Shown here: piece by piece, positions 47,847-64,000 of the stretch
Layout: each line of letters starts with the position of its first letter
How positions within the stretch are numbered: the first letter of the stretch is position 1
NCBI GenBank assembly: GCA_017449935.1
Contig: JAFSYP010000124.1
Location: forward strand, 26,885-90,884
DNA: 64,000 bases
Direction: 5' to 3'
DNA from: Clostridia bacterium
GTDB taxonomy: Bacteria > Bacillota > Clostridia > Oscillospirales > Acutalibacteraceae
The notes under the pieces: generated by a model
Told to the model about the DNA's origin: nothing
The model's database searches: none
The model's input: the letters and a program-made list of their open reading frames with translations, nothing else
Translations under genes and position numbers: made by a program

Positions 47847-49397
47847 ATGCAGAGATGTCTGGGGTGTATGCAGTTGTTCGGCAAAGAGTATGATGTTTGC
47901 CCGTATTGCGGATACTTTGTCGGAACTCCGGCAGTATCGAGAAACCATCTGGAGCCGGGGACAGTGCTGCAAAGGCGTTACACGCTCGGCAGGGTGCTCG
48001 GACAGGGCGGCTTCGGCGTTACCTATATCGCATGGGATCACAAGCTCGAGAGACCTGTGGCGATCAAGGAGTATTTGCCGCATGCTTTTGCATCCCGCAT
48101 GACCGGCACCAAAAGAGTGACGTGCTTCAATGAGGAAGCGCAGCGGCAATTCCTGCATGGTCTGCAGAAGACGCGCCGGGAAACGAAAGCACTGTCACGA
48201 TTCGACGCGCTGGAAAGCGTTGTCAAGGTTTATGACTGTGTAGAAGAAAACGGTACGGCATACATCATTATGGAGTTATTGCGCGGCAAGACTGTCAAGG
48301 AAATCGTGGATCAACGCGGCAAATTGACATTTGTACAGACGATGCGGATCATGACGCCGGTATTGGAGACGCTCGACGCAATGCACAAGGCCGGTATGAT
48401 CCATCGTGACGTCGCGCCGGACAACATCTTTGTGTGCAAGGACCACAAAATAAAGCTGTTGGATTTCGGCGCGGCGAGAGTTATCAGCGATGCGGACGAA
48501 AAAACACTGTCTGTGATGCTCAAGGCCGGCTATGCGCCGATCGAACAATACAGCAGCAAAGTCAGACAAGGCGCATATACAGACGTGTACGCCGCGAGCG
48601 CAACGCTGTATAAGATGCTGACGGGTGAAACGCCGCCGGACAGTTTGAGCCGCGAGATGGACGGGGATGAACCTGACTTACTCCGGAATACTGACGCGCC
48701 GCAATCGGCGCAGAGAGAGATTCTGCGCGGGATGGCACAAAATCCGGACAAGCGCACACAAAGTGCTGAGAAATTACTGCAGGGACTGCAGCAAGCGATT
48801 CGAAAAAAGGAAAGGAAACAATCGGCCGGAGCTTTGAAAAGGGCCACTGCGTATTTGCGGGTCCTTATCTTGCGGTTTGGCGCTTGGGGACGAAATGCGA
48901 TACAGAAAATGCATATATTCTGTCAGCCAAAAGTGCAGCACAAAAAAAGAGTTGCGTTGGTTTTGGTAATGATAAGTGTTGTGTTGAGCGTTGTGGCTTG
49001 GATAGCTCATAGCCGGCGAACGCCAGACATGGAAGATGTGAGTCTTCTTGTATCCGAAACACAGACGGCGCCATCTTCACTGTTGTCTCAATCATCGAAA
49101 ACCACAACCACCGTCTCTGAAAACAGGACCGTCTTTCGCAAACGTGCAATCATCTCCATTAGTGTGGACGGCTTTTTGGCGATCGTTGTGTTGGGTACGG
49201 TTGCTGTACTCCATAAAAAACAGGCCGCATTTGAACAGGAAGAGGATGACCTGTACGAAAAAACCTTTGAAGAGGGCTATCATGGCCCGGTAAACGATCC
49301 GGATGCTTCACAGGATAGCACGTCGGGCAATATTGAAGAAAGCGAGAAATATACTGTCGTGTCCTTGGATGAAAAGGATTACGAAGATCGAGAATAA
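47847..49397 (+). CDS. Zinc-ribbon Ser/Thr protein kinase with two membrane helices
   Basis: A 516-residue kinase. An N-terminal zinc ribbon (C4, C7, C18, C21; CLGC and CPYC) precedes the Hanks-type domain at ~38-300. Catalytic features are intact: glycine loop GQGGFG, VAIKEYLP lysine, IHRDVAPDN catalytic loop and LLDFGAAR. Membrane helices at ~368-388 and ~433-456 enclose a ~44-residue loop; the last ~60 residues are acidic. It lacks the PASTA repeats of housekeeping PrkC. The 3' part is visibly more AT-rich than the rest of the window, suggesting a different history. ATG at 47847 is preceded by AGGGGAG. Confidence 0.92.
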   Translation: MQRCLGCMQLFGKEYDVCPYCGYFVGTPAVSRNHLEPGTVLQRRYTLGRVLGQGGFGVTYIAWDHKLERPVAIKEYLPHAFASRMTGTKRVTCFNEEAQRQFLHGLQKTRRETKALSRFDALESVVKVYDCVEENGTAYIIMELLRGKTVKEIVDQRGKLTFVQTMRIMTPVLETLDAMHKAGMIHRDVAPDNIFVCKDHKIKLLDFGAARVISDADEKTLSVMLKAGYAPIEQYSSKVRQGAYTDVYAASATLYKMLTGETPPDSLSREMDGDEPDLLRNTDAPQSAQREILRGMAQNPDKRTQSAEKLLQGLQQAIRKKERKQSAGALKRATAYLRVLILRFGAWGRNAIQKMHIFCQPKVQHKKRVALVLVMISVVLSVVAWIAHSRRTPDMEDVSLLVSETQTAPSSLLSQSSKTTTTVSENRTVFRKRAIISISVDGFLAIVVLGTVAVLHKKQAAFEQEEDDLYEKTFEEGYHGPVNDPDASQDSTSGNIEESEKYTVVSLDEKDYEDRE

Positions 49398-49518
49398 GAG
49401 TCCCGGTGTATGCGCGTCAAAGGCACTTTGCTTTTACGGAGAAACGTCAAATCGGTAATTATCGAACCGATCAATTGATTGTCGATCATTAAAAATTACA
49501 AAAAATGCATTAAGAATT

Positions 49519-49547
49519 ACAACCCGCCCAAATATGAGGCGGGTTGT
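49519..49547. repeat. Perfect 10-bp inverted repeat upstream of the peptide genes
   Basis: ACAACCCGCC (49519-49528) and GGCGGGTTGT (49538-49547) flank a nine-base loop. The right arm overlaps the shared leader element. It could be an operator or the end of an upstream transcript; no T-run follows. Confidence 0.65.
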
Positions 49548-49585
49548 GGTATTGTACAGACGTCGACGGGGGACAGAGAACCCCC
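49546..49585 (+). promoter_or_regulatory. Shared leader element, copy 2 (peptide genes)
   Basis: GTGGTATTGT, then ACAGACGTCGACGGGGG, equals the element at 46734-46760 apart from one base. A G5/C5 stem around ACAGAGAA follows. The distance to the first peptide ATG is 26 bases. Confidence 0.75.
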
Positions 49586-49611
49586 AAAAAACAGGAGAAA
49601 GGAGAACGACC

Positions 49612-49683
49612 ATGGAGTTCATCGTCACCGCCATCATCGTAGCGTCCGCAGCCGTCATCGTCGCGCTGATCGCGACCCGCTGA
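49612..49683 (+). CDS. 23-residue hydrophobic peptide 1
   Basis: The frame encodes MEFIVTAIIVASAAVIVALI followed by ATR: one membrane-spanning helix with a single acidic residue at the start and Arg at the end. ATG follows GAAAGGAGAACGACC, a strong ribosome binding site. It is too short for standard gene callers. It resembles small membrane proteins and type I toxins, but no antisense RNA was identified. A second peptide of identical length follows 42 bases later. Confidence 0.72.
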   Translation: MEFIVTAIIVASAAVIVALIATR

Positions 49684-49725
49684 GGAAAAGCAGTAGGGAA
49701 AGACTGAAAGAAAGGAGAACGCGTC

Positions 49726-49797
49726 ATGACGCTCATCATCGTCACTTCCATCCTGGCAGCCGCAGCCGTGACTGTCGCCGCGATCGTTTGCAGATAA
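49726..49797 (+). CDS. 23-residue hydrophobic peptide 2
   Basis: The frame encodes MTLIIVTSILAAAAVTVAAI followed by VCR. Length, helix position and C-terminal Arg match peptide 1, and both are preceded by the same AAAGGAGAACG site. The two look like paralogs from a tandem duplication. A terminator at 49816-49839 ends the unit. Residues after MTLII are comparable to the transmembrane helix of the protease-FHA protein at 58428, which also begins MTLII, though this may be coincidence in a low-complexity helix. Confidence 0.72.
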   Translation: MTLIIVTSILAAAAVTVAAIVCR

Positions 49798-49815
49798 ATG
49801 AATACACACGGGCAC

Positions 49816-49839
49816 AAAAGACGCTTCGGCGTCTTTTTT
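49816..49839 (+). terminator. Terminator of the peptide genes
   Basis: AAAAGACGC and GCGTCTTTT close on TTCG, with further T residues. Confidence 0.9.
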
Positions 49840-50005
49840 ATGATTATGCAGATCGAAAAAAAGGGGAATAATGTGTCAAAAAATTCAATAGAAAGGTATA
49901 CTTTTTCGGATATATATGTTATAATACATAAAATATGCCTCTGCAGGTTGACTTCACTATCCGCACGCCGGAATTGTACGGCGCCGTCTTCGAGGAATGG
50001 GAATT

Positions 50006-50728
50006 ATGATCGAGATCCTTCTTTTCAGCAGCGATCTGTTGGAGCTGTCCGCGCTGAAGAAAAAAGCGGAACAGATCATCGGATCGATGAATCATACTCT
50101 TCTCTCTTTCGGCAACGTGATGGATATGATGGACTATATCCATTCGTCGCGTCCGGACAAGATGATGATCTTCTTTTCCGAAAACAGCGTGATCCCCGGG
50201 ATCGAAGCGTCTTTGAAGATCTACTCCATGAATCCGAAGAGCCGGTTTTGTCTGATCCGCCGGGATGCGCCGGATGATCTGGAGGCGATGTTCTTTAACG
50301 GCGTTTCCTATTACGTCCCCTCGGTGCAGGACGACGTGCGGCTTGCGCGGTGTTTCCGGCGTTTTTTTGAATTCTACGACGAGTCGTACAATAAAATGCT
50401 CATGCTGAAAAACAAGGCCGGAGAGCAGGCGATCCCGATCCGGCAGATCCTGTACTGCATGAGCGACAAGCGAAAGGTCATCTTTGTCGGCAAAGAAAGA
50501 TCCTGGGAGTTTTACTACAAGCTCGACGAGATCGAAAAGATGGCGGGAAACAACTTCCTGCGCTGTCATCAAAGCTATCTGGTCAACATGGACCGGATCG
50601 AAAAGTTCGTGGAGGACGGTCTGCTGCTGACGTCGGGCGACTTCGTCCCGGTCAGCCGAAAGAAATACTTTTCCTCCAAACGCGCGTATTTATCCTATGT
50701 TACGGATTCCAAAGAACCTATTTTATAA
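50006..50728 (+). CDS. LytTR-family DNA-binding regulator with degenerate receiver-like domain
   Basis: A 240-residue protein. Residues ~1-125 have a receiver-like alpha/beta pattern (IEILLFSSDLLEL) but I do not see the standard phosphoacceptor Asp. Residues ~135-235 are a LytTR domain: IPIRQILYCMSDKRKVIFVG, then FLRCHQSYLVNMDRI and the end GDFVPVSRKKY. LytTR proteins bind imperfect direct repeats in promoters. ATG at 50006 is preferred, with GAGGA 9 bases upstream; ATG at 49997 is also in frame. It sits immediately before the kinase-FHA block and is the only transcription factor in it. A TATAAT lies at 49920-49925. Confidence 0.87.
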   Translation: MIEILLFSSDLLELSALKKKAEQIIGSMNHTLLSFGNVMDMMDYIHSSRPDKMMIFFSENSVIPGIEASLKIYSMNPKSRFCLIRRDAPDDLEAMFFNGVSYYVPSVQDDVRLARCFRRFFEFYDESYNKMLMLKNKAGEQAIPIRQILYCMSDKRKVIFVGKERSWEFYYKLDEIEKMAGNNFLRCHQSYLVNMDRIEKFVEDGLLLTSGDFVPVSRKKYFSSKRAYLSYVTDSKEPIL

Positions 50729-50743
50729 GTAAGGAGAAAAAAC

Positions 50744-52207
50744 ATGACGATCGAAATGAACGGGCGCACCTACTGCAACCGATGCTTTTCTCCCGTCCCG
50801 CAGGGCGCGCAGTGCGTGTGCAAGAACACGGCGAACGATCCGTCCCTGCTGGCGAACGGCGCCATTTTGTCGGGCAGATATATCGTCGGCAACGGCTTTC
50901 GGGAGACGGACGTGGTCACGGAATATATCGGATTTGATTCCAAGATGAATTGCCGCGTCGTCATCAAGGAATTCTTTCCGCGGCTGCTTTCGCGCCGGAA
51001 CGCGGACGGTTCTCTGTCTGTGATCGACGCCGACAAGCGCACCGCGTACAAACAGCTCATGCAGGCCTTTGTGCAAAGGCTGCAGAAGATCTCAAGCCTC
51101 GCACAGGAGAGCGCCGCAGTGCGCATCCGGGATGCGTTCTATGCAAACGAAACGTCCTATTTCATCGTCGAGGAGATCCGCGGCATTTCCGCCGCCGAGT
51201 ATGGCGCGCACGGCGCCGTGATGGAGCGCGCGGCGGCGCTGCATACGCTGCGTTCGCTGCTTCTGGGGATATACATGCTGCATGCCAACGGGATCGTGCA
51301 CGGCAATCTCTGCCCCGATACGGTCTATCTGGTCGGCAAAGCGGTGGTGATAGACGGGTTTGAGCCGTCGACCGGCGTTGTGTCCGCCGTGCTTCGGGAT
51401 TCCGTACCGGCCAAGATCAACACCGGATTCCTTCCGATCTCCGCCTACGGCAGCAGCAAGAACAAACCGTCCGTCGATATTTTTTCGGCAGGCGCGATTT
51501 TGTATTTTCTGTTGACAGGCAAAAAGCCGTCGTCCATGTTCAGCGAGGAGAAGCGGCTCGACGCGCAGGCGCTCTCACAGAGCCGCGCCGGCGAAGAACT
51601 GACGAAGCTCATTCTGAACATGTGCGGGCAGGGCGCGTACGCCTATGAGAGCGCGGAGGCGGCGATCCGGGACCTGAACCCGATCCTTCGGGCAAGCAAT
51701 CTCGAGGAGATCCCCCTGCCGAACGAGGAGAAGGCGGCGCCGCTTTCACCGGTCGCTTCGCCGAGCGTTCCGGAATCGCCGGTCGCCGCGCCGAAAAAGA
51801 ACAAGCGCAGCAACATCCTGATCGTCGCAGCCGCAGCCGCGCTCATTCTGATCGTGCTGGGCGTTGTGCTCGGTCTCAAGCTTGCGCATAAGCCGGCAAA
51901 GCCCGACGAATCCGTCACACAGACCGACTCGTCGGTCACGGAAGTCTCGGCGACCGAAGCGCAGACGACGGCGCCTGCCGAGACTCGGACGCAGACGAAA
52001 GTGACACACGAAGCGCCGACCGAACCGACGGCGCAGGGAACTACGGCCGTGTCCACTTCGTCCGGGCAGATCGTCGTCCCGACGACGCAGGAATCGCCGG
52101 AAACCACGACCGCGGCCGACGACGACACGTCCACGACGCAGTCGAAAACATCCCCTGTGCTGCCGCCGCCTCCCACGACGTCCAAGCCGCAGATTGTGAC
52201 GCCCTGA
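50744..52207 (+). CDS. Zinc-ribbon membrane pseudokinase with Thr-rich extracytoplasmic tail
   Basis: A 487-residue protein with the same design as the neighbouring kinases: Cys4 ribbon (CNRC, CVC), kinase fold ~38-310, membrane helix ~356-380, Thr/Ser-rich tail ~381-487. Key residues are lost. The HRDxxPDN loop reads VHGNLCPDTV, so the catalytic Asp is Asn and the metal-binding Asn is Thr. DFG is IDGFEP. The glycine loop is not recognisable. The VAIK lysine is kept (VVIKEFFP). It should fold and may bind partners but is unlikely to phosphorylate. It follows the LytTR gene by 15 bases. Confidence 0.88.
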   Translation: MTIEMNGRTYCNRCFSPVPQGAQCVCKNTANDPSLLANGAILSGRYIVGNGFRETDVVTEYIGFDSKMNCRVVIKEFFPRLLSRRNADGSLSVIDADKRTAYKQLMQAFVQRLQKISSLAQESAAVRIRDAFYANETSYFIVEEIRGISAAEYGAHGAVMERAAALHTLRSLLLGIYMLHANGIVHGNLCPDTVYLVGKAVVIDGFEPSTGVVSAVLRDSVPAKINTGFLPISAYGSSKNKPSVDIFSAGAILYFLLTGKKPSSMFSEEKRLDAQALSQSRAGEELTKLILNMCGQGAYAYESAEAAIRDLNPILRASNLEEIPLPNEEKAAPLSPVASPSVPESPVAAPKKNKRSNILIVAAAAALILIVLGVVLGLKLAHKPAKPDESVTQTDSSVTEVSATEAQTTAPAETRTQTKVTHEAPTEPTAQGTTAVSTSSGQIVVPTTQESPETTTAADDDTSTTQSKTSPVLPPPPTTSKPQIVTP

Positions 52208-52322: not shown

Positions 52323-53042
52323 ATGAAATTCAGTATTCTCGGAAAACGGATCGCGGCGTGTGTGGTTGACGCATTGATTATCAACAGCGTGAGTGCGGTG
52401 CTCTACGCCGTGACAGAGATCTGGTACGTTTCTTTTCTTTCCGTCGTCGTCGGTTTTGCGTACTATACGCTGTTCGAGGGCGGCGAATGGCACGCAACGC
52501 CGGGCAAGCGGCTGTTCGGGATGCAGGTCGTGAACGCGAACGGCTTCGGGATCGATTACGGTACGGCCGCCGTGCGCAGTCTGTCCCGGTTTTTGTCCGG
52601 TATTTTCCTGGGCGCCGGCTTCTGGATGGCGCTGTTTTCGGATAACCGGCAGACGCTGCACGACAAGCTCGCCGGCACGTTTGTGGTAGACTGCGACGCA
52701 GCTGCCGAGCGTGGCGCGTGCCGGGACGCAGGTCATGCCGTTGTCGGCGTGACGGGTGAGCTGGCGGGTATGCGCTTCCCGGTGAACGGCAACGGCGTGA
52801 TGATCGGCCGTGACGCGATCTCCTGTCAGATCGTGTTCAAGCATACCAAAGGCATCAGCCGTCTGCACTGCTTCCTGTCCTACAATCCGGCCAGCGGCAT
52901 GTTTATCCTGAGCGACCGCAACTCCACCTACGGCACGTTTACGTCCCGCGGCGTGCGCGTGACGCCGCAGAGAAGCGTTGCGCTCAAGAGCGGCGAGCGA
53001 TTCTGCCTGGCGACGAAAGACGCAATGTTTGAAGTGGTTTAA
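52323..53042 (+). CDS. RDD-FHA membrane protein 1
   Basis: A 239-residue protein. Residues 1-~130 are an RDD-type membrane domain (GKRIAACVVDALIIN, then ATPGKRLFGMQVV and DNRQTLHDKLAGTFVV). Residues ~150-238 are an FHA domain with IGRDA, the Ser-His pair in GISRLHCFL and the Asn-Gly motif in RNSTYGTF, so the phosphothreonine-binding residues are intact. ATG at 52323 follows AGGAGG; 115 bases separate it from the pseudokinase gene. A second RDD-FHA protein of similar size is encoded at 60774. Confidence 0.9.
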   Translation: MKFSILGKRIAACVVDALIINSVSAVLYAVTEIWYVSFLSVVVGFAYYTLFEGGEWHATPGKRLFGMQVVNANGFGIDYGTAAVRSLSRFLSGIFLGAGFWMALFSDNRQTLHDKLAGTFVVDCDAAAERGACRDAGHAVVGVTGELAGMRFPVNGNGVMIGRDAISCQIVFKHTKGISRLHCFLSYNPASGMFILSDRNSTYGTFTSRGVRVTPQRSVALKSGERFCLATKDAMFEVV

Positions 53043-53078
53043 CGGGCTGCCTGAAGAAAAAGCGGAGGGGACGACATT

Positions 53079-55373
53079 ATGCTCACGATCCAGAATAAAA
53101 AACTTTGCGAACACTGTTTCGCGCCGATCTCCGAAGACGGCGTCTGTACCGTATGCAACGGGGAATCGAACCGCACGAACTATCCTGCCGCGCTGCCGGA
53201 GGGCACGATCCTTCAGGGACGCTATATCATCGGCAAGGTGCTGGGCAAGGGCGGCTTCGGCGTGACCTATCTCAGCTATGACGCGACGGAAGAGCAGCGC
53301 GTCGCCATCAAAGAGTATCTCCCGGAATCCTACGCATACCGCAACGCCGGCGGAACGGAAGTCCTTGCGACCGGCGGAGACGGCGAGAGCGTGTTTCGCA
53401 ACGGCGCCGCGCAGTTTTACCGCGAAGCGCAGCTGGTCGCCCGCTTCAACGGCAACCCGAATATCATCAGCGTCTATAAGAGCTTTTGCGAAAACAATAC
53501 CGTGTATTTCGTCATGGAATACCTTGAAGGGCGCGATCTCAAACGGTTCCTTCGTGAAAACGGCGGAACGCTGACCGCGGAACAGACGCTGGAGATCGCG
53601 TCGTACATCACGGACGCGCTGATCATCGTACATTCCGCGAATATCCTGCATCGGGATATTTCGCCGGACAATATCTATATGTGTGCGGACGGCCGCATCA
53701 AGCTGATCGACTTCGGCGCCGCGCGTCAGGTCGTGGGAAGAGAGTCGCAGAGTCTTTCCGTGATCTTCAAGCAGGGCTTCGCGCCGCTGGAGCAGTATCA
53801 GAAAAAAGGCAATCACGGCCCCTGGACAGACATCTACGCGCTGGGCGCGACGATGTACTATGCACTGACCGGCAAAGTGATCGACGACGCCATGACGCGT
53901 CTGGCGAACCCGGATCTTGACATGACGGGCATCCCGACAGGGCTTGCCGCCGTGCTGAGCAAGATGCTCATGGTCCAGGAGCGCGACCGCTTCCAGAGCG
54001 CGATCGAGCTGAAGAGAGCGCTGTCCGCGCTGGAGGTCTCTATGGACGAGCTCCCCGACGGCGTGCAGCCGGCTTTGCCGCATCTGGAGGAGGTGTCCGC
54101 GCTGGAGGCGCTGCCGCAGACGGAGGTGCAGCCGCTGCCGCCGATCGGATCGCCGGCGCCGCAAACGCCGAAACGCCGCGGCGCGCTTGCGCAGGTCCTG
54201 GTCATTGCGATCGCGGCGGTCTTGATCGCCGGAATCTTTGCGTTCGTCTTCTTTACTTCGGGCGACCGCAAAAAAGGCGGCGCCGCGGACGCGCAGGATA
54301 CCACGGCCGTGACGCAGCCGCAGAGCGACGCGCAGGAGAGCCTGACGCAGGGCGGCACGACGAAGCCGGGCGAATCGCAGACAAGCGTTTCGAGCTCCGA
54401 GGCGGGCACGGAGCAGACGAAGCAGCAGATCATCGTGCCGTCGACGAAGCCGTCCGAAACGAAAAAGCAGAAGGAGCCGTATAAGACCGGTACGGGCAAC
54501 GCCGCCAACGGCAACGGCATGTGCGAATACTATAAAGCCGACGGAACGGTAGAGTATGTTTATTATGTCGACTTTCGGGATAATTCGACGATCTACCGCA
54601 TGAAGCCGGATGCGAGCGAAAAGCAGAGAGTCGCGAACGTTTCCGCGACCAGATTCCTGCTGGTCGGCAGTACGATCTTTTTTGCGAACAGAGACGACGA
54701 TTATACGCTGTATCGGATGACGCTGTCCGGCGACTCCGTACAGAAGGTCTGCGACGACCAGCCTTATTCGATGTATTCGGACGGCAAGTGGCTCTACTAC
54801 CGTGCGTTCAATCAGGAAAACAGCCTGTGCCGCATTCGCGTGAACGGCACGAAGCACGAGCAGTTGACGGATTTCCCCGTGGCTTGGTTCCTGTTTGAGG
54901 ACGACACGCTGTATTTCGCGGACAAAGCCGATTCCTATTATTACCGGATGAACCCGGACGGCAGCGACAAGCGCCTGCTGACCAAGAGCCAGGTGTATTT
55001 GCCGACGTTCTATGACGGACGGATCTACTTCAGCGATGCGGACGCCGCGATCTGGAGCATGAAGCCGGACGGAACGGATATGAAGGCCGTGATCGAGGAT
55101 GCGGGTTACTATTTCAACGTCTGTCAGGGCCACGTCTTTTTCCTGTCGCTGGTGGATGAGTATGTGTATTCCGCGGATCTGAACGGCAAGAACCTGCGCA
55201 AGGTGCAGAAGCTCCCCGGCATGAGCAACGAGAGCGGCGTCGATACCCAATACAATGCGATCTATACGACGGAAAACGCGATCATCGTCTGCTACGGTAC
55301 GGCAAACGGTTATCAGCTCAAGATATTCAGATACGATACGGGTGCAGACGGAAGAATAACTGTATTGACTTGA
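53079..55373 (+). CDS. Zinc-ribbon Ser/Thr kinase with extracytoplasmic DUF5050-like propeller
   Basis: A 764-residue receptor-like kinase. C10/C13 and C23/C26 form the ribbon. The kinase domain (~45-310) has GKGGFG, VAIKEYLP, LHRDISPDN near 190 and IDFGAAR near 211. A membrane helix lies at ~371-394, then a Ser/Thr/Gln-rich linker. Residues ~485-764 consist of repeats of DUF5050/propeller type (SDGKWLYYRAFNQ, IYFSDADAAIWSMKPDGTD). The outer domain suggests ligand or cell-wall sensing. It is 36 bases after the RDD-FHA gene and 16 before the next kinase gene. Confidence 0.92.
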   Translation: MLTIQNKKLCEHCFAPISEDGVCTVCNGESNRTNYPAALPEGTILQGRYIIGKVLGKGGFGVTYLSYDATEEQRVAIKEYLPESYAYRNAGGTEVLATGGDGESVFRNGAAQFYREAQLVARFNGNPNIISVYKSFCENNTVYFVMEYLEGRDLKRFLRENGGTLTAEQTLEIASYITDALIIVHSANILHRDISPDNIYMCADGRIKLIDFGAARQVVGRESQSLSVIFKQGFAPLEQYQKKGNHGPWTDIYALGATMYYALTGKVIDDAMTRLANPDLDMTGIPTGLAAVLSKMLMVQERDRFQSAIELKRALSALEVSMDELPDGVQPALPHLEEVSALEALPQTEVQPLPPIGSPAPQTPKRRGALAQVLVIAIAAVLIAGIFAFVFFTSGDRKKGGAADAQDTTAVTQPQSDAQESLTQGGTTKPGESQTSVSSSEAGTEQTKQQIIVPSTKPSETKKQKEPYKTGTGNAANGNGMCEYYKADGTVEYVYYVDFRDNSTIYRMKPDASEKQRVANVSATRFLLVGSTIFFANRDDDYTLYRMTLSGDSVQKVCDDQPYSMYSDGKWLYYRAFNQENSLCRIRVNGTKHEQLTDFPVAWFLFEDDTLYFADKADSYYYRMNPDGSDKRLLTKSQVYLPTFYDGRIYFSDADAAIWSMKPDGTDMKAVIEDAGYYFNVCQGHVFFLSLVDEYVYSADLNGKNLRKVQKLPGMSNESGVDTQYNAIYTTENAIIVCYGTANGYQLKIFRYDTGADGRITVLT

Positions 55374-56877: not shown

Positions 56878-57483
56878 ATGGCTATTCAACAATGCGCAAA
56901 CGGACACATCTACGACGACAGCAAATCCGCAAGCTGTCCCTACTGCTCCGGCGAGAACGCCATCAGCCCGACCATCGCGCTGGGCGAGAGCGTTCCTCCG
57001 ACGCCCGGATTCGATCCGACGCAGGTGCTTTCCAGCGTTCCGACCGGTTCCCAGATCGAGGAAATGGGCGTTACGATCGCGCCGCCGACGACGCCTTCGC
57101 GTCAGGGCAAGACCGAGTTCGGCGACATGACGATGAACTCCGAGGTCAAGCCTGTGCGCGGCTGGCTCGTGATCATCGACGGCGAGAAGAACGGCATGGA
57201 CTTCCGCCTGCACACGGCGCGGAACACCATCGGACGCGGCAGGGATAACGACATTTCGTTCGACTTCGACAAATCCATCTCCGAGGTCAACAATGTTTCC
57301 GTGATCTATGACGATCGCAACAACCTGTTCTTTATCCAGGCGGGCGAGAACGCGACCAACAACGTCTACGTCAACAACACGCTGCTTCTGGAGCCCAGAC
57401 AGCTCAAGGACAACGACATCGTTGAGATCGGCAATACGAAGCTGATCTTCCGCTCTCTGTGCAACGAAACATTCTGCTATTGA
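56878..57483 (+). CDS. Small soluble FHA protein with N-terminal Cys motif
   Basis: A 201-residue soluble protein. The start has CANGH and CPYC, a likely zinc knuckle. Residues ~45-80 form a Thr/Pro-rich linker (TIAPPTTPSRQGKTEF) that could be a kinase target. Residues ~95-195 are an FHA domain with TIGRGRDNDI and NNVYVNN. The usual Ser-x-x-His pair is replaced by SISEVNNVS, so the His is missing and phosphothreonine binding is uncertain. The plan resembles GarA/OdhI: a tail that is phosphorylated and binds its own FHA. It follows a 132-base gap and precedes a PP2C gene by 24 bases. Confidence 0.85.
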   Translation: MAIQQCANGHIYDDSKSASCPYCSGENAISPTIALGESVPPTPGFDPTQVLSSVPTGSQIEEMGVTIAPPTTPSRQGKTEFGDMTMNSEVKPVRGWLVIIDGEKNGMDFRLHTARNTIGRGRDNDISFDFDKSISEVNNVSVIYDDRNNLFFIQAGENATNNVYVNNTLLLEPRQLKDNDIVEIGNTKLIFRSLCNETFCY

Positions 57484-57507: not shown

Positions 57508-58401
57508 ATGTTCAACTCCAGAAAGAACGGCGTCTCCGACGCACCCGAGGCGCAGCCCGAAAGACGTTTTTCGCCGACGACGCCCCTGCGGCCGATGCCG
57601 CCGGCAGATCAATCGCTTTCGATTCGGTTGGGCGACGGCAGCGTCCTTCGCATGGGGAACGCGCAGCATCAGGGCAGGCGTCCGTATCAGGAAGACAGCT
57701 GCGGCTACTCCAATCTTTCCGACGCCGCGCTGATCGCGCAGAAGGGCGTTCTGGCCGTTCTGGCGGATGGCATGGGCGGTCTGGCAAACGGCAAAGAGGT
57801 TTCGACAGCGACCGTACGCGGCATGATCGACTTCTTCAATTCGTACAGCGCCGTGTGCCGCGGCGGCAGCGATCTGCTGCGCAGAGCCGCGCAGGTCAAC
57901 GAGGAGATCTGCCGCACGTACTGCCCGACCGGCAAGGTGGAGGCAGGCTCCACGCTCGTTTGCGCGCAGATCATGCACGGCAGGCTGCACTGGCTGTGCA
58001 TCGGCGACAGCCGGATGTATCTGCGGCGCGGCGGGATGCTGTACCAGATCAACGAGGATCACGATTATCTCAATCAGTTGCTGACCGACGCCATTCGGGA
58101 TAAGGGCACCGTTGAGGACGCTTTCAATGACCCGAAGAAGGACGTGCTCGTCCGCTGCATCGGCAACCGGGATCTTTCTCTGGCGGACGCCAGTACGGCC
58201 GGACTGGAGCTGCAGGACGGCGACAAGATCCTGCTCTGCTCGGACGGCGTATACAATGCGCTGCCGCTGCAGGCCATCAACGCACTTATGGAAAATCCGC
58301 CGCAGAATGCCGCACAGAGCATTGCCGATGCGGTCGTGGCACAGAATATTCAGTCGCAGGATAATCTGACGATTGTGATGATTCAATACAATAATAATTA
58401 A
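57508..58401 (+). CDS. PP2C-family protein phosphatase 1
   Basis: A 297-residue metal-dependent Ser/Thr phosphatase. After a ~45-residue Pro/Arg-rich N-terminus come the PP2C motifs: RRPYQEDSCGY near 53, VLADGMGG near 87, CIGDSRMY near 168, LLCSDGVYN near 245 and the end DNLTIVMIQ. All metal-binding Asp residues are present. It should reverse the phosphorylation carried out by the cluster kinases. It lies between a small FHA gene and the protease-FHA gene, with 24 and 26 base gaps. Confidence 0.93.
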   Translation: MFNSRKNGVSDAPEAQPERRFSPTTPLRPMPPADQSLSIRLGDGSVLRMGNAQHQGRRPYQEDSCGYSNLSDAALIAQKGVLAVLADGMGGLANGKEVSTATVRGMIDFFNSYSAVCRGGSDLLRRAAQVNEEICRTYCPTGKVEAGSTLVCAQIMHGRLHWLCIGDSRMYLRRGGMLYQINEDHDYLNQLLTDAIRDKGTVEDAFNDPKKDVLVRCIGNRDLSLADASTAGLELQDGDKILLCSDGVYNALPLQAINALMENPPQNAAQSIADAVVAQNIQSQDNLTIVMIQYNNN

Positions 58402-58427: not shown

Positions 58428-60005
58428 ATGAAAAGACTCAGCAAAGTATTGGCAATCCTTTTTGCGCTGGCGCTGGTTTACCAGATGTTCGGCATGACCG
58501 CATCGGCGAAGGACAAGGAGGTCGCTGTCGCCGACATGCAGAAGAGCGTCGTCTTTATCGAAATGACCGTAGAGTTTACCGCAAAGAATCTGGCGATCCA
58601 GAATTACTATACCGGAGAGTCTACCCCGCTTTCCAAATCGGCAAGCTATACCGGTACAGGCTTTGCGATCGGCGTCCCCGGCGAACCCGTACAGTATATC
58701 GCGACCTGCGACCACGTTGTCGAGTTTCCGAACGGCGTTTACCTGATCACGCTGGACGAGGAGTATAACGTCCTGGAAATCGAACAGGCAGAGGAAGGAA
58801 CCAGCTATCCGGAAATGGTCGAAGACGAAAAGAAAGGCCTTATTTACTGCTTCGATTATTTTGAGGCCAGAACAGTTGAGCTCAAAGCGATCTATTCTCT
58901 GGCGTCCAACGACTCGGTTTCGCTCAGCTTGATCGCGAGCAATTATGAAGAGGACGTCGCGCTCTGCAAGATCGCGACAAACGAACCGACCGACAAGATC
59001 GCCGCGCGTCCGCTGCGCCTGAAGGAAAACGTTGCCGTGGGCGACAGTGTATATGCGATCGGCTATCCGTATACCGCAAGGTACAACAATTCGGAAGGCA
59101 GATACGACTCCGCCGACTCCGTCGTGACCGGCGGCGTGATCTCCAAGATCCAGTTGACCGAAGGTCACCGTCATGCCAAGCAGCAGTTCTATACCTACAT
59201 GATCGACGCCAACATCACCAACGGCAATTCCGGCGGCCCGCTGTTTACGAAGGACGGCGCTGTCATCGGCGTCAACTCCTTCGGCCACACCCTGACCGAG
59301 GCAGCTCCCGCCAATTATGCGATCGCGATGGAATCTCTGATCAAGCTGCTGGACAATACGCACACGCCCTACGTTCTCGATGACGGTATAGAGGAAACCA
59401 ACATGACGCTGATCATCGCCATCGCGGCTGCGGCCGTCGTGCTGATCGCGGCAGTGATCATCGTGATCGCGCTGCGCAATAAGCAGAAGGCGAAGAACGT
59501 CCCCGCATTCGCAGCGTCCGATGCCGCGATGCCCGAAGCGGTCCCGGCGATGGCCGGCCAGGCAAACTTCAATGTGCCGCCCATGCAGGCAGGCGACGAT
59601 CTCGGCAGCACGGTCGTGTCCGACAATACCGCTGCGCAGAGCGCTCCCGCAGAGAAAGAGCCGTCTCCCGCTCCCGCTGCCGCACCGGCTTCCGGCAAGA
59701 AGTATCTGCTCGGCATCAGCGGCCCGATGGAAGGCAAGAAGTACTCCATCGAAGACAGAGCGGTCATCGGCAGAGATTCCGCAAGATGCAACGTCGTATT
59801 CCCGACGAACCAGCCCGGCGTCAGCGGCACGCACTGTGAAGTCGTCCGCACCGGCAACGTGCTTTCACTGAAGGATCTCGGTTCCACATACGGCACCTTC
59901 CTCAGAGACGGCACAAAGATCACACCGAACGTTCCCGTCGTGCTCAAGAGCGGCGACCAGTTCATCGTCGGTGACAAGGAGATCATTTTCGAGGTCAGAT
60001 ATTAA
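58428..60005 (+). CDS. Extracytoplasmic trypsin-like protease fused through a membrane helix to a cytoplasmic FHA
   Basis: A 525-residue protein. An N-terminal signal/anchor (1-~27) precedes an S1C/HtrA-like protease at ~28-315 with a complete triad: His in ATCDHVVEF near 95, Asp in EEDVALCK near 176 and Ser in NGNSGGPL near 267. There is no PDZ domain. A membrane helix spans ~325-349, followed by a Pro/Ala-rich linker and an FHA domain at ~425-525 with IGRDSARC, the Ser-His pair in GVSGTHCEVV and STYGTF. This links an outer protease to an inner phosphothreonine reader in one chain. Confidence 0.9.
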   Translation: MKRLSKVLAILFALALVYQMFGMTASAKDKEVAVADMQKSVVFIEMTVEFTAKNLAIQNYYTGESTPLSKSASYTGTGFAIGVPGEPVQYIATCDHVVEFPNGVYLITLDEEYNVLEIEQAEEGTSYPEMVEDEKKGLIYCFDYFEARTVELKAIYSLASNDSVSLSLIASNYEEDVALCKIATNEPTDKIAARPLRLKENVAVGDSVYAIGYPYTARYNNSEGRYDSADSVVTGGVISKIQLTEGHRHAKQQFYTYMIDANITNGNSGGPLFTKDGAVIGVNSFGHTLTEAAPANYAIAMESLIKLLDNTHTPYVLDDGIEETNMTLIIAIAAAAVVLIAAVIIVIALRNKQKAKNVPAFAASDAAMPEAVPAMAGQANFNVPPMQAGDDLGSTVVSDNTAAQSAPAEKEPSPAPAAAPASGKKYLLGISGPMEGKKYSIEDRAVIGRDSARCNVVFPTNQPGVSGTHCEVVRTGNVLSLKDLGSTYGTFLRDGTKITPNVPVVLKSGDQFIVGDKEIIFEVRY

Positions 60006-60042
60006 ATCTTAGTCGGGAAATCCGACGGAATGGGTAGAAATC

Positions 60043-60777
60043 ATGATGACTTTTCAAACTTATGCGTATACCAGTCCCGGAGGGCGGACCAACAACGAGG
60101 ACATGTATCTGTGCTCCGAAGGGCTCTGGACGCTGGCAGACGGATTGGGCGGACATGATTGCGGCGAGGTCGCTTCCAGAGAGGCCGTATACTGTACGGA
60201 CACGCTCTGGAAGCAGCGCGGCTGCCCGACGGACGAAGCGTCGCTGCTTCGGATCCTGTCGGACGTCAACAAGTATATTCTGCGCCTGCAAAAGGAAGAG
60301 CCCGCGCGCGCATCCATGCGCAGCACGCTCGTCTTCGTCGTGACGGACGGCAGGACGCTCCGCTATGCCCACGTCGGAGACAGTCGATTCTATCTGTTTC
60401 GAGGCAACAAACTCGCAGCGCAGTCGGAAGACCATTCCGTCTGCGCCGCGGTTGCGCGGTTGGGCGAGATCCGGTATGAGGACATCCGGTTCAACGAGGA
60501 TCGGAACAAGCTGCTGAAGGTGATCGGCAACGAGGAGGATCTGAAGATCCAATCGCTCCCGCCCGCGCTGCCGCTGCAGCCGGGCGACGCCTTCCTGCTC
60601 TGCACGGACGGTTTCTGGGAATACGTCTATGAGCAGGAGATGGAGATCGACCTGTCCAAATCCGAGAGCGCGGAGGAATGGCTGACGTATATGACCAAGC
60701 GTCTGCTTCTGCGCACGCGGAACAAAAACAACGACAATTTCACGGCAATCTGTGTACGGGTGGGTGCAGACGTATGA
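60043..60777 (+). CDS. PP2C-family protein phosphatase 2
   Basis: A 244-residue PP2C. Motifs in order: GRTNNEDMY near 17, LADGLGGHD near 32, AHVGDSRFYL near 112, LLCTDGFWEYV near 189 and the end NKNNDNFTAICV. All metal ligands are present. It is distinct from the other PP2C by lacking the N-terminal extension. ATG at 60046 is an alternative start. The gene overlaps the next by 4 bases. Confidence 0.93.
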   Translation: MMTFQTYAYTSPGGRTNNEDMYLCSEGLWTLADGLGGHDCGEVASREAVYCTDTLWKQRGCPTDEASLLRILSDVNKYILRLQKEEPARASMRSTLVFVVTDGRTLRYAHVGDSRFYLFRGNKLAAQSEDHSVCAAVARLGEIRYEDIRFNEDRNKLLKVIGNEEDLKIQSLPPALPLQPGDAFLLCTDGFWEYVYEQEMEIDLSKSESAEEWLTYMTKRLLLRTRNKNNDNFTAICVRVGADV

Positions 60778-61529
60778 GCACACAACCAATGAAAGCGAAT
60801 GTGCGCGAACGTGCGGCGGCAGCGATGATCGATCTGCTTTTGATCGTGCTTTTGGATGCTGCGATCATACTGCCGCTGTATTTTCTGCTGCATTTACCCC
60901 CGGCCGTATGCCTCGGCGCCATGCCGGTATGCCACGTCCTGTACTGCACGCTGTTCTGTCTGGGCAGCATGGGCGCGACGCCCGGTATGTTTTTTTGTAA
61001 GCTCTGCGTCGGAAACCGTGACGCGGAATCTGTCGGTGCGGATCGGCTCCTGCTTCGCGCCGTGTTCAGCTTCTTCAGCTGCCTGCCGCTCGGCCTCGGG
61101 CTGCTGCTTATGCTTTCGGACAAGGAACACTGCACGGTCTACGACTATGCGAGCGGCGTGTTTGTCTATTCGCTCCGGCAGTCGGACGCGCCGAAGCATA
61201 CGCTGGCGTTTCTGCGCGTGCGCAGCGCCGACGGAGAAACGGTCGAATATGAGGTCCCGACATCCGGCGTGATGATCGGCCGCAATCCGGAGAGCTGCCA
61301 GATCCTGTTCCCCGCAGCGGAACCGGACGTCAGCCGGCAGCACTGCATCGTAAAGTTCAATCCGCAGACCGGGATGTTCCTGCTCAGGGACTGCGGCTCG
61401 ACCTGCGGCACGTTTTTGGAGGACGGCACGCGCGTCTGCGCGGACCAATTCACGGCGTTGAACGCGGGCGACGCGTTCTATGTCGGCGCGAAGAAGAATC
61501 GGTTCGTTCCGGTGCTTCGGGAAGAATAA
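60774..61529 (+). CDS. RDD-FHA membrane protein 2
   Basis: A 251-residue protein with an RDD-like membrane domain (about 10-140: RERAAAAMIDLLLIVLLDAA, then ATPGMFFCKLCVG and SDKEHCTVYDYASGVFV) and an FHA domain at ~160-250 with IGRNPESC, the Ser-His pair in DVSRQHCIV and STCGTFLEDG. It parallels the protein at 52323 in both domains, so the block may contain two related half-modules. The ATG overlaps the PP2C stop, giving translational coupling of a phosphatase with a phosphothreonine reader. Confidence 0.88.
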   Translation: MSTQPMKANVRERAAAAMIDLLLIVLLDAAIILPLYFLLHLPPAVCLGAMPVCHVLYCTLFCLGSMGATPGMFFCKLCVGNRDAESVGADRLLLRAVFSFFSCLPLGLGLLLMLSDKEHCTVYDYASGVFVYSLRQSDAPKHTLAFLRVRSADGETVEYEVPTSGVMIGRNPESCQILFPAAEPDVSRQHCIVKFNPQTGMFLLRDCGSTCGTFLEDGTRVCADQFTALNAGDAFYVGAKKNRFVPVLREE

Positions 61530-61571
61530 GCGTTCCGTGATGCGAAGAAATCAGAAAAAGGGGGACCGATC

Positions 61572-63860
61572 ATGCTGATCGACGGAGAACAGCTTTGTCC
61601 GTATTGTTTTTCGCCGCTGCTTCAGGGCGTCTGTCCGGACGGCTGCGCCGAAGCGCATCGCAGCGTGGTCGCGCTGCCTCTCGGCGCGACGCTGAACGGT
61701 AAATTCCGGATCGGAAAGCTCCTGGGCAAGGGCGGCTTCGGCATCACCTATCTGGCGTACGATACCGAGAAGCATGATCGCGTGGCGATCAAGGAGTATT
61801 TCCCGGATCATATGGTGCACCGCAACACGGGCGAAACGATGGTGCTGCTGAGCGAAAGCGACGCGGAAAACAAGGCGAGCTATCTTGCCGGCGCGGAAAA
61901 ATACTACAACGAAGCGATGCTGCTGTCCCGGTTCAAGGGGATGGAAAGCATCGTGGACGTTTATGAGTTCTTCTATGCCAACAATACGGTATACTATACC
62001 ATGGAATACATCGACGGCATGGATCTCAAAACATATATCCGCCGCTGCGGCGGAAAGATACCGGAAAACGAGCTGGTCTACATCGCGCAGAAGATCGCCG
62101 AAGCGCTCATTCAGGTGCACAGCACGGGCTTTCTGCATCGGGATATCGCGCCGGACAATATTTGTCTGTGCCGGGACGGCCGGGTCAAACTGATCGACTT
62201 CGGCGCGGCGCGTCAGGTGGTCGGCGAAAAATCCAAGAGCCTGTCCGTGATCCTCAAACAGGGCTTTGCCCCGATCGAGCAGTATCAGACGCACGGCCGG
62301 CAGGGACCGTGGACCGACCTGTATGCGCTGGGCGCGACGCTGTATTACGGCGGGACGGGAGAGCTGATCGACGACGCCTCCACCAGAGTGGTCGACGAAA
62401 CGCTGGACGTCTCCGCGTTTTCCAAAGAGTTCGGCGAGATCCTTGTCAAAATGCTGCACGTGCGTATTTCCGAAAGGATGCAGAGCGCGGTGGATCTGCA
62501 GCTGGCGCTTTTGAGAACGCTGATCGAACCGCAGCCGTTCCGCATCGACGGAGTGCAGCAGACGCAGTCTGCCGTACACGCCGTGCAATCGGACGTGCCG
62601 ACGGACACGATCCGCGAGAGCACGGAAAACCGGTCCGTCAATTTCGGAGAGAAGCGGTATATCCAGGGCCATCAGCGCGCTTCGCGAAGAGCGGCGCTGA
62701 TCTGCGGCGCGGGGTGCATCCTGCAATTGGCGGCGCTGATCGCGTTTTTGCTGCTTGCGCCTGTCGGAAAGCTGTTTCTGTATATTCCGCCGGCGCTGCT
62801 CTGCGGCTTGTCTGAGTGGCTCGGCATACGCGAATGCCGCCGATTTGCCAAGCTGGCTGACGCGCAGAAGGATCGGTACAACAAGGTCGTGCATGACGCG
62901 CGCATCCGTCCGTCTGTGTGGCTTCGGACGGGCAGCTTTGCGCTGTGCGCGGCGATCTGCGTCGTGGCTCTTATCATCGGGACGCGGGCGTATCCCGCTT
63001 TGCAGTATAAAAAAGGGACCGCGGAATATGCCGAGGGCGCATATACGCAGGCGCTCAGGCGTCTGACGCTGGCGGGGGATTACGCCGACGCCGACGAGCG
63101 GCGGCGGGACTGCGAATACCGCATCGCCCAGTCACTCATGGACGCACACGAGTATCTGGACGCCATCGAGCATTTTGAAAACGCGCGGGATTATGCGGAC
63201 AGCGCGGAAAAGATCAAGGGCTGTATGTATCTGTACGCGAGCGGCGATATGGACGCGGAACAGTCCGAGGATTTTTTGTGCGCGCTTTCTGAGGAAGGGT
63301 TCCGGAACAGCCGGGAGCTGTACGAGGAAATGACGCGCTGGAGCATCACGCTGACCGCGGCGTCCGACGATGATTTTTCCAAGGATCAGGACACGCTGAA
63401 TCTGTACGGATTCATTTATTTTAATTTTTCCGTGAACGGCGGAAAAAAAGGAGAGAGCATCCGGTTGAAGGTGCGGATCACCGACACGGGCGGCCGGACG
63501 ATCACGGAAACGTATAAGAATGCGTTTAAGAGGGGCCACAGGGAATCGTATTATCTGGGGTACCCGTATCCTCATATCGGCAATGTGCGGAGCGGAAAAA
63601 TGACCGCAGAGATCCTCAATGCCGATACGGACAAGGTTTTGGCGAAAAAGACCGTAAATCTCGGCAGCGTCGGCGCCTTCACCGTGCGCGTACAGGCGGA
63701 CGCTTCGCTGTATGATCAGCCGGACGGGAATGCTTCCCCGTCGGCGGACGTGCGGGCGGGAGAGCTTTACACGGTTGAAGAGGTCAAAAACGGATTCGGT
63801 TTAATAGATACCGACAACATGCGCGGCTGGCTCGCGCTGGACGATACGGAGAGGGAGTAA
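61572..63860 (+). CDS. Zinc-ribbon Ser/Thr kinase with multi-helix membrane region, TPR-like and SH3-like ectodomain
   Basis: A 762-residue receptor-like kinase. The ribbon is CPYC with CPDGC. The kinase domain (~42-310) has GKGGFG, VAIKEYFP near 72, LHRDIAPDN near 189 and IDFGAARQV near 210. Membrane helices occupy ~374-418 (two segments) and ~456-474. The outer part (~475-762) contains TPR/Sel1-like helices (YAEGAYTQALRRL, YLDAIEHFENARDYADS) and ends in an SH3b-like domain (SLYDQPDGN, GFGLIDTDNMRGWL). SH3b domains often bind cell wall. It begins 42 bases after the RDD-FHA gene. Confidence 0.9.
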   Translation: MLIDGEQLCPYCFSPLLQGVCPDGCAEAHRSVVALPLGATLNGKFRIGKLLGKGGFGITYLAYDTEKHDRVAIKEYFPDHMVHRNTGETMVLLSESDAENKASYLAGAEKYYNEAMLLSRFKGMESIVDVYEFFYANNTVYYTMEYIDGMDLKTYIRRCGGKIPENELVYIAQKIAEALIQVHSTGFLHRDIAPDNICLCRDGRVKLIDFGAARQVVGEKSKSLSVILKQGFAPIEQYQTHGRQGPWTDLYALGATLYYGGTGELIDDASTRVVDETLDVSAFSKEFGEILVKMLHVRISERMQSAVDLQLALLRTLIEPQPFRIDGVQQTQSAVHAVQSDVPTDTIRESTENRSVNFGEKRYIQGHQRASRRAALICGAGCILQLAALIAFLLLAPVGKLFLYIPPALLCGLSEWLGIRECRRFAKLADAQKDRYNKVVHDARIRPSVWLRTGSFALCAAICVVALIIGTRAYPALQYKKGTAEYAEGAYTQALRRLTLAGDYADADERRRDCEYRIAQSLMDAHEYLDAIEHFENARDYADSAEKIKGCMYLYASGDMDAEQSEDFLCALSEEGFRNSRELYEEMTRWSITLTAASDDDFSKDQDTLNLYGFIYFNFSVNGGKKGESIRLKVRITDTGGRTITETYKNAFKRGHRESYYLGYPYPHIGNVRSGKMTAEILNADTDKVLAKKTVNLGSVGAFTVRVQADASLYDQPDGNASPSADVRAGELYTVEEVKNGFGLIDTDNMRGWLALDDTERE

Positions 63861-63864
63861 AACG

Positions 63865-64000
63865 ATGGAGAACATTCTGCAGGGAAGGAATCTGTGCCCG
63901 CACTGTTTCACGAAGCTGGACGAAGCGGGAGCCTGTCCGCAGTGCGGCGCGGCGGAGCATGTGCACAAGTATCCGAAGGCGCTTGCGGAGGGCGTCGTGC
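63865..64000 (+). CDS. Start of another zinc-ribbon kinase (runs off right edge)
   Basis: The first 45 residues show the ribbon (C11, C14, C24, C27; CPHC and CPQC) and then YPKALAEGVV, aligning with the LPxGTxL segment that precedes the kinase domain in the other members. The kinase domain itself is beyond the edge. It starts 4 bases after the preceding kinase gene, so the island continues rightward. Confidence 0.75.
   Translation, partial: MENILQGRNLCPHCFTKLDEAGACPQCGAAEHVHKYPKALAEGVV

What the first reader, a model, noticed from the sequence alone, without database searches (positions are those of the whole stretch)
47847..64000. Accessory kinase-FHA-PP2C signalling island
At least four catalytically intact Hanks-type kinases (47847, 53079, 55390, 61572), a fifth cut by the edge (63865), a pseudokinase (50744), four FHA proteins and two PP2C phosphatases lie in 16 kb, mostly with gaps of under 45 bases. 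All kinases share an N-terminal zinc ribbon, an LPxGTxLxxRY-like pre-kinase segment and no PASTA repeats, so they are distinct from the housekeeping PrkC/Stp pair. Their outer parts differ. This looks like a multi-input, shared-output phosphothreonine network. No secretion or tellurium-resistance genes (VWA/TerD) are in view that would place it in a known FHA system.
Basis: partly seen in the sequence, partly recalled or inferred. Interest (0 to 1): 0.85.

Follow-up and report, generated by a model that had tools for sequence, protein, structure and literature searches.

The report
Kinase-FHA-phosphatase island with micropeptide promoter
A bacterium, apparently of the Clostridia, carries a compact set of protein kinases, phosphatases and phospho-binding proteins that belongs to a widespread bacterial signalling module, here joined to a gene regulator and to a pair of tiny membrane-like peptides that may be one of its outputs.

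Summary
Window 47847-64000 holds four intact zinc-ribbon Hanks kinases, one pseudokinase, four FHA proteins, two PP2C phosphatases and the start of another zinc-ribbon protein. The contig ends at the window edge. TerD and WXG100 were not found in the draft genome. A paralogous operon (C78), of the same order in five genus genomes, joins LytTR, zinc-ribbon FHA, FHA and pseudokinase, with PP2C next in four; its LytTR has Glu for Asp in 6 of 6, one from another genus. Best reading: a multi-sensor phosphothreonine network with a transcriptional arm. New variant of a known kind; the wiring is inferred.

The parts
46679..46710 (+). degenerate direct repeat (four mismatches to the pattern), 21-bp period, before the leader of a secreted LRR protein
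46804..47718 (+). secreted BspA-type LRR protein; a relative in G087 (C25, 46% identity over 308 aa) also follows a motif copy (two mismatches)
   Evidence: Pfam LRR_5
47847..49397 (+). kinase K1: zinc ribbon, intact Hanks kinase domain, transmembrane segments (read from sequence)
49491..49522 (+). direct repeat AAAAATTACAA / AAGAATTACAA, period 21 bp (LytTR-type spacing)
49520..49555 (+). palindrome CAACCCGCCC..GGCGGGTTG followed by a -10-like TATTGT
49612..49683 (+). micropeptide A, 23 aa, hydrophobic, with a Shine-Dalgarno
   Evidence: pN/pS 0.26 pooled over 12 distinct sequences
49726..49797 (+). micropeptide B, 23 aa, hydrophobic, with a Shine-Dalgarno
   Evidence: pN/pS 0.25 pooled over 6 distinct sequences
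49816..49839 (+). intrinsic-terminator-like hairpin with T run
   Evidence: also in the C15 and C78 copies
49997..50728 (+). LytTR transcription regulator; N-terminal domain not matched as a receiver by Pfam, no Asp at the phosphoacceptor place (Ser in the alignment, a Glu directly after it); start may be 50006
50744..52207 (+). pseudokinase (HGN, DGF), zinc ribbon, Thr/Pro-rich outer part
52323..53042 (+). RDD membrane domain plus FHA (GRD, SRLH kept)
53079..55373 (+). kinase with outer DUF5050 domain
55390..56745 (+). kinase with C-terminal membrane anchor only
   Evidence: anchor read from sequence
56878..57483 (+). zinc ribbon plus FHA (marker gene of the widespread module; SR.HA replaced by SEVNN)
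57508..58401 (+). PP2C phosphatase a; motif Asp residues invariant in the 8 aligned sequences
58428..60005 (+). exported trypsin-like protease, membrane segment (read from sequence), C-terminal FHA; H96, D176, S268 invariant in 7 of 7
60043..60777 (+). PP2C phosphatase b
60774..61529 (+). RDD membrane domain plus FHA (GRN, SRQH kept)
61572..63860 (+). kinase with a large outer region without Pfam match
63865..64000 (+). start of another zinc-ribbon protein, probably a kinase, cut by the contig end

Best explanation
The block is an accessory phospho-Ser/Thr signalling island built on a widespread module: zinc-ribbon membrane kinases, PP2C phosphatases, a zinc-ribbon FHA protein and membrane FHA proteins (trypsin-FHA, RDD-FHA; VWA-FHA or PrsW-FHA in others). 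Likely mechanism (inferred): kinases with different outer domains sense different cell-surface states and phosphorylate threonines on themselves and on shared partners; FHA domains gather on these marks and so control an exported protease and membrane proteins from inside the cell; the two PP2Cs reset the marks; the pseudokinase is a scaffold or regulator. In this genus a transcriptional arm is added: a LytTR protein that has lost the receiver aspartate is encoded beside the pseudokinase (window) or beside zinc-ribbon FHA, FHA and pseudokinase (paralogous operon on C78), and the C78 type, perhaps the window type too, most likely drives promoters with two direct repeats 21 bp apart, which precede tandem 22-27-aa hydrophobic peptides, secreted proteins and, in a relative, a kinase gene and the LytTR operon itself. 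Shown: gene content, conservation of gene order, loss of catalytic and acceptor residues, selection on the peptides, the repeated promoter. Inferred: phosphorylation, FHA binding, LytTR binding, any role of the peptides.
For: Module: (49 loci with full flanks: kinase within 5 kb in 48, PP2C 45, another FHA 47, trypsin-FHA 23, VWA 26; at 5-10 kb, in 41 loci with flanks of 9 kb or more, kinase in 8 and PP2C in 7). Transcriptional arm: LytTR-(zinc-ribbon FHA)-FHA order in 6 of 6 genomes where this LytTR was found, pseudokinase next in 5 of 6; Glu at the phosphoacceptor in 6 of 6, while two distant LytTR proteins have Asp and the DDE pocket; HRD Asp lost in 6 of 6 pseudokinases, window included. 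Motif with at most one mismatch in 4 of 5 genus genomes with this LytTR and 0 of 6 without (Fisher 0.015). Sites stand before the LytTR operon and before a kinase in G087 (no mismatch); before the micropeptide unit that precedes the LytTR operon on C78 (three mismatches); before two families of secreted proteins in both G000 and G087 (zero to four mismatches; the proteins are 46% and 34% identical); and before other tandem hydrophobic ORFs in a second genus, G133, on the contig of its LytTR (two mismatches). LytTR sites in print: paired 9-bp repeats 10-13 bp apart (PMC11347149, PMC6193735, passages).
Against: No step is tested biochemically. The window's own LytTR is only 28-31% identical to the C78 type and may bind another site. 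G158 has the LytTR but no motif match (59% complete genome); G008 has a one-mismatch site although one search found no such LytTR in it. At three mismatches the reversed control gives as many or more matches in G057, G106 and G121, and two further two-mismatch sites of G133 (C9) lie in a repeat that looks like coding DNA. Fisher treats related genomes as independent. LytTR was within 5 kb of the widespread module in 0 of 49 loci, so the transcriptional arm is a local addition. The micropeptide unit has no kinase next to it at 8 of 14 loci seen. The trypsin-FHA was not found in G087, the one other genus member in that sample. The window's zinc-ribbon FHA has lost residues usual for phosphothreonine binding. 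The order-level sample held this LytTR in 1 of 394 genomes, the window's own.
Confidence: 0.65

Rival explanations
1. Ordinary accessory kinase cluster: lineage-specific duplication of surface-sensing kinases with their usual FHA and PP2C partners, without a common output; LytTR and micropeptides are chance neighbours in a repeat-rich region.
For: Window kinases are similar in DNA to each other and to C78, C15, C10 and C35 copies. Of 14 micropeptide loci seen, 8 have no kinase next to them on the stretch held: C101; G087 C9 and C18; G156 C36; G153 C66 and C81; G133 C23 twice.
Against: LytTR-FHA-FHA order is conserved in six genomes, with the pseudokinase next in five; the micropeptide unit lies beside a K1-type kinase at the other 6 of 14 loci (C90, C15, C78; G087 C2; G156 C98, C103); the motif precedes a kinase and the LytTR operon in G087.
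Confidence: 0.25
2. The hydrophobic peptides are type I toxin-antitoxin toxins or selfish repeats; the direct-repeat promoter serves them alone and the kinases are hitch-hikers.
For: 23-aa very hydrophobic ORFs in multiple copies with strong Shine-Dalgarno sites and a terminator; GRAVY 1.4-2.6 for the six that I computed.
Against: Similar promoters stand before secreted-protein genes in two genomes and before a kinase and the LytTR operon in G087. An antisense RNA was not looked for specifically; the Rfam scan of window, L012, L015 and L171 gave no match there.
Confidence: 0.12
3. The block is part of a secretion or stress system (type VII secretion, Ter) whose other genes lie beyond the contig end.
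For: Contig ends inside the block; VWA-FHA genes accompany the module elsewhere.
Against: No WXG100 and no TerD match in the draft, which is 87% complete; among the 30 proteins in or beside relatives of the module that I scanned, none is a secretion-machine component by Pfam (a chosen subset).
Confidence: 0.05

Closest known systems
PASTA kinase / Stp phosphatase pair (PrkC/Stk1-Stp1)
   Same: Hanks kinase with PP2C partner at the membrane
   Different: No PASTA; zinc ribbon; many kinases and FHA proteins; a true PASTA pair lies elsewhere in this genome; the NCBIfam Stk1 and Stp1 models score below their cut-offs on K1 (172.8 of 450) and on PP2C a (121.6 of 230)
Kinase + PP2C + VWA neighbourhoods of GAP1-N2 GTPase systems (PMC7159879, passages)
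   Different: Those are described for actinobacteria beside GTPases; none of the 30 neighbours scanned was a GTPase of that kind, and FHA, trypsin-FHA and RDD-FHA are central here
KKP prophage kinase-kinase-phosphatase module (PMC11341870, passages)
   Same: PP2C with kinases and FHA
   Different: No PP2C-kinase-kinase triplet with cold-shock and FHA fusions in the window
Pseudo-receiver regulators such as RitR (named as lacking the aspartate in PMC4601284, passages; its link to the kinase StkP is recalled)
   Same: Response regulator without phosphoacceptor, candidate target of a Ser/Thr kinase
   Different: LytTR output domain, and encoded in one operon with FHA and pseudokinase
AgrA-PSM-Pmt of staphylococci (recalled; search listing only)
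   Same: LytTR regulator, short hydrophobic peptides in tandem, ABC-2 permease beside the regulator (C78-type operon)
   Different: No histidine kinase or pheromone gene noticed beside it; peptides look transmembrane rather than amphipathic (helical moment 0.19-0.77); receiver Asp lost
LytTR regulatory systems of Streptococcus mutans (PMC6193735, passages)
   Same: LytTR, direct repeats with 21-bp period, autoregulation suspected
   Different: Those pair LytTR with an inhibitory membrane protein; here with FHA and pseudokinase

Membership tests
Widespread zinc-ribbon-FHA / PP2C / kinase module | zinc-ribbon FHA gene with PP2C, kinase and membrane FHA genes within 5 kb | tested here: met
   window gene order; 80 loci
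PASTA kinase / Stp pair | PASTA repeats on the kinase | tested here: not met
   PASTA kinase elsewhere in the genome
Ter stress system | TerD-type genes | tested here: not met
   own draft genome (87% complete)
Type VII secretion locus | WXG100 genes | tested here: not met
   own draft genome (87% complete)
KKP module | PP2C followed by two kinases, with cold-shock and FHA fusions | tested here: not met
   Pfam architecture; definition from passages
Two-component LytTR response regulator | LytTR DNA-binding domain | tested here: met
Two-component LytTR response regulator | phosphoacceptor Asp in the receiver | tested here: not met
   Glu in 6 of 6 C78-type proteins; window copy has Ser there followed by Glu, no Asp
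LytTR regulon | paired direct repeats with about two helical turns between starts | tested here: met
   spacing rule from passages. Binding itself is not testable with these tools
Phenol-soluble modulins | amphipathic helix | tested here: not met
   low helical moments, no amphipathic control computed
Phosphothreonine-binding FHA | GR and SRxH signature residues (signature recalled) | tested here: inconclusive
   kept in both RDD-FHA proteins, partly in trypsin-FHA, largely lost in the window zinc-ribbon FHA
Known anti-phage defence kinases | system-specific PADLOC match beyond a generic kinase domain | tested here: not met
   kinases match many kinase models at once (PD-T4-6, mad6, MkoA and others); weak PP2C and trypsin matches; none for the zinc-ribbon FHA (best 25 rows shown per protein)

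The most novel reading that the evidence does not exclude
A phosphothreonine counterpart of an Agr- or LRS-like system: Hanks kinases, a conserved pseudokinase and FHA proteins, instead of a histidine kinase, gate a LytTR activator whose receiver is frozen with Glu, and this activator switches on a multi-locus regulon of tandem transmembrane micropeptides, surface proteins and further kinases, giving positive feedback.
Probability: 0.33. Interest if true: 0.82.

Novelty: new variant of a known kind. Interest (0 to 1): 0.62.

Why it matters
To my knowledge (recalled) the outputs of bacterial FHA-kinase-phosphatase modules are mostly unknown. Here an output can be guessed from sequence: a regulator without a receiver phosphate site, a conserved promoter and tiny peptides under purifying selection. 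That makes a direct test possible of whether Ser/Thr phosphorylation can replace the histidine-kinase input of a LytTR regulator, and offers a function for a conserved pseudokinase. The wider module is common enough (412 relatives of one marker gene) for the answer to reach well beyond this genus.

Tried and rejected
Extending the contig: it ends at the window edge. The low ends of C78 and C15 do not continue the edge gene by inspection; their high ends and the other contigs were not checked. Secretion or Ter system: rejected for the draft. Defence system: only generic matches. PSM membership: rejected on helical moment. Rfam for the leader: no match; the scan found a SAM riboswitch in the window and a group II intron in L171. 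NCBIfam: no protein of ten reached its curated cut-off. Distance histogram of AAATKACA pairs (9 pairs at 21 bp, 1 at 8, 1 at 39; reversed word none) is not used as proof, because many of those loci were fetched with the 21-bp pattern. LytTR order-level search: own genome only, 1 of 394. PP2C was not found on the G158 contig. In the distant LytTR of G057 (keeps Asp) a two-mismatch site lies about 1 kb upstream, but the reversed control gives 8 matches against 7 in that genome. Novelty in print rests on ten full-text searches of open-licence papers, judged from listings, and on passages of five papers; none listed showed the module with LytTR or these peptides, but subscription papers are not held. 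My note says six kinase matches on C90; one search shows five.
Full report
WHAT IS THERE. The window is contig C90, bases 26885-90884, of a 2.95-Mb draft genome (87% complete), and the contig ends where the window ends. One family member, G028, matches the contig of a Candidatus Gallacutalibacter record (Clostridia) in length and sequence, so the organism is probably a clostridium. From 47847 on, Pfam and alignment confirm four intact Hanks kinases, a pseudokinase, four FHA proteins and two PP2C phosphatases on one strand, with ten of fourteen gaps under 45 bases. All 12 kinases or pseudokinases aligned carry four conserved N-terminal cysteines; the pre-kinase segment is clear in the kinases and looser in the pseudokinases. 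The window kinases have no PASTA match; the genome's PASTA kinase lies beside its own PP2C on C53. Outer parts differ: DUF5050 at 53079, membrane anchor only at 55390, a large region without Pfam match at 61572. The edge gene shows 45 aa with a zinc ribbon only. Trypsin-FHA keeps H, D and S of the protease triad in 7 of 7 aligned sequences.

IT IS A WIDESPREAD MODULE. In 150 family genomes a relative of the trypsin-FHA is found in 10 and of the zinc-ribbon FHA in 11, own genome included in both counts. In six of the nine relatives (G028, G078, G091, G106, G121, G124) zinc-ribbon FHA, PP2C and trypsin-FHA are consecutive or nearly so, five of the six with a kinase on the fetched stretch (the G124 contig is 5.6 kb). 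Of the other three, G015 has kinase, PP2C, PrsW-FHA and FHA without the zinc-ribbon FHA, and G029 and G096 show no such cluster on contigs of 8.1 and 6.1 kb. A scan of species genomes with one peptide pattern gave 412 relatives of the zinc-ribbon FHA, of which the best 80 were returned (the first is the query's own genome). By record title they come from Bacillota, Synergistota, several groups of Proteobacteria, Acidobacteria and others. With both flanks of at least 5 kb (49 of 80 loci), a kinase lies within 5 kb in 48, PP2C in 45, another FHA in 47, trypsin-FHA in 23, VWA in 26, RDD-FHA in 2 and LytTR in 0; over all 80, truncated loci included, the figures are 64, 72, 70, 33, 38, 2 and 0. Further out (5-10 kb; 41 loci with 9 kb or more on both sides) kinase falls to 8 and PP2C to 7, and LytTR occurs once. 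Genes were recognised with single window or G028 sequences as queries, so these are lower bounds. So the genes travel together, and VWA-FHA, absent from the window, is a usual member. TerD and WXG100 were not found in the draft genome. The 30 proteins in or beside relatives that I scanned by Pfam (a chosen subset) include VWA-FHA, PrsW-FHA, an ABC transporter with FHA domains, and in some Gram-negatives MotA/ExbB-like and coiled-coil proteins; the rest are unrelated enzymes, chaperones and the like, with no secretion machine. PADLOC gave only generic matches. No NCBIfam model reached its cut-off for any of ten proteins.

Between kinase K1 and the pseudokinase lie a LytTR gene (49997) and, before it, a small transcription unit: two direct repeats with a 21-bp period (49491-49522), a palindrome, a -10-like TATTGT, two 23-aa hydrophobic ORFs with strong Shine-Dalgarno sites (49612-49683, 49726-49797) and a terminator hairpin (49816-49839). 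DNA search of 11 genus genomes found further copies in the own genome at C15, C101 and C78, the leader alone at C15 and before the LRR gene at 46804, and partial or divergent copies in G087, G156 and G153; a 35-base match in G155 looks like chance. The peptides vary mostly at synonymous positions: pN/pS 0.26 (A, 12 distinct sequences) and 0.25 (B, 6 distinct), pooled over all pairs and so not independent. Of 14 micropeptide loci seen, 6 have a K1-type kinase next to them and 8 do not.

A PARALOGOUS OPERON. On C78 the same parts recur: K1-type kinase, micropeptide unit, ABC-2 permease, LytTR, zinc-ribbon FHA, FHA, pseudokinase, PP2C, two kinases. The run ABC-2 permease-LytTR-(zinc-ribbon FHA)-FHA-pseudokinase is found in G000, G087, G153, G156 and G158; PP2C follows in four of these, and none was detected in the last 1.1 kb of the G158 contig. 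G133, of another genus, has LytTR-(zinc-ribbon FHA)-FHA only, with two PP2Cs and two kinases beside a second zinc-ribbon FHA on another contig. In all six LytTR proteins the phosphoacceptor Asp is Glu and the usual N-terminal acidic pair is a single Asp; two more distant LytTR proteins keep Asp and DDE. The window copy has no Asp at that place (Ser in the alignment, followed by Glu) and no acidic pair. All six pseudokinases examined, window included, lack the HRD aspartate; five also lack the VAIK lysine, which the window copy keeps. These features are expected if a histidine kinase is not the input.

THE PROMOTER MOTIF. LytTR proteins bind paired 9-bp direct repeats 10-13 bp apart (PMC11347149 and PMC6193735, passages only). 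The 21-bp period seen here fits. With at most one mismatch the pattern occurs in G000 (4), G087 (6), G153 (3) and G156 (1), and in none of the seven other genus genomes; the C78-type LytTR occurs in G000, G087, G153, G156 and G158 (Fisher 0.015, relatedness ignored). At up to three mismatches the 11 genomes give 28 matches against 8 for the reversed pattern; outside the genus the reversed pattern gives as many or more in G057, G106 and G121. Downstream of the sites: micropeptides; a K1 kinase and the LytTR operon (both G087); secreted LRR proteins in G000 (four mismatches) and G087 (two), 46% identical over 308 aa; a second secreted family in G000 (none) and G087 (three), 34% identical over 287 aa; and other exported or unknown proteins. 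In G133 two sites, with two mismatches each, on the LytTR contig each precede two tandem hydrophobic ORFs of 23-27 aa with other sequences; three overlapping matches on its C9 lie in a repeat that looks like coding DNA. That a second genus shows the same layout with different peptides is the strongest single support; the one-mismatch site of G008, where no such LytTR was found, speaks against a strict link.

MECHANISM AND LIMITS. I read the island as a multi-sensor phosphothreonine network with membrane outputs (protease, RDD proteins) and a transcriptional arm. Kinase activity, FHA binding, LytTR binding and the purpose of the peptides are inferred. The window LytTR is distant from the C78 type (28-31% identity). 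Two of four FHA domains depart from the canonical residues (signature recalled). The LytTR clade is rare: 3 strong matches in 150 family genomes (a fourth, G057, at 30% identity, keeps Asp) and 1 of 394 in the order sample, and the trypsin-FHA of the window was not found in G087. Similar ideas exist in print: kinase-PP2C-VWA neighbourhoods with zinc-ribbon kinases (PMC7159879, passages), KKP (PMC11341870, passages) and aspartate-less regulators (PMC4601284, passages). None of the papers listed by my ten full-text searches, judged from the listings, joins such a module to a LytTR regulator and micropeptides. Hence: new variant of a known kind.

Noticed in passing
window 49488-49839; C15:4853-5194, C78:10343-10680, C101:22006-22349 of the own genome; G087, G156, G153, G133: Repeated small transcription unit with tandem 22-27-aa hydrophobic ORFs under purifying selection (tested for the genus forms A and B); also occurs without a kinase next to it (for example C101, G153 C66 and C81, G133 C23).
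   Followed up: yes
window 46679-46743: The same leader and a degenerate copy of the repeats stand before a secreted LRR protein; a relative in G087 has a motif copy too.
   Followed up: partly
L084 12136-14457: ABC-2 transporter fused to FHA domains beside the module, another possible phosphothreonine-controlled output.
   Followed up: no
L116 3196-4823, L093 9150-9962: A MotA/ExbB-like protein and a coiled-coil protein accompany the module in some Gram-negatives; the sequence cluster of the latter spans 12 loci, that of the former 7.
   Followed up: no
window 44001-52000: GC is 0.53-0.56 here against 0.58-0.63 elsewhere in the window, perhaps a sign of recent acquisition around LytTR and K1.
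   Followed up: no
window 30087-30173: SAM riboswitch on the minus strand.
   Followed up: no
L217 10182-13577 (G087): A kinase of the paralogous operon carries outer DUF6273 and BspA-type LRR domains, the same repeat type as the secreted protein at 46804.
   Followed up: no
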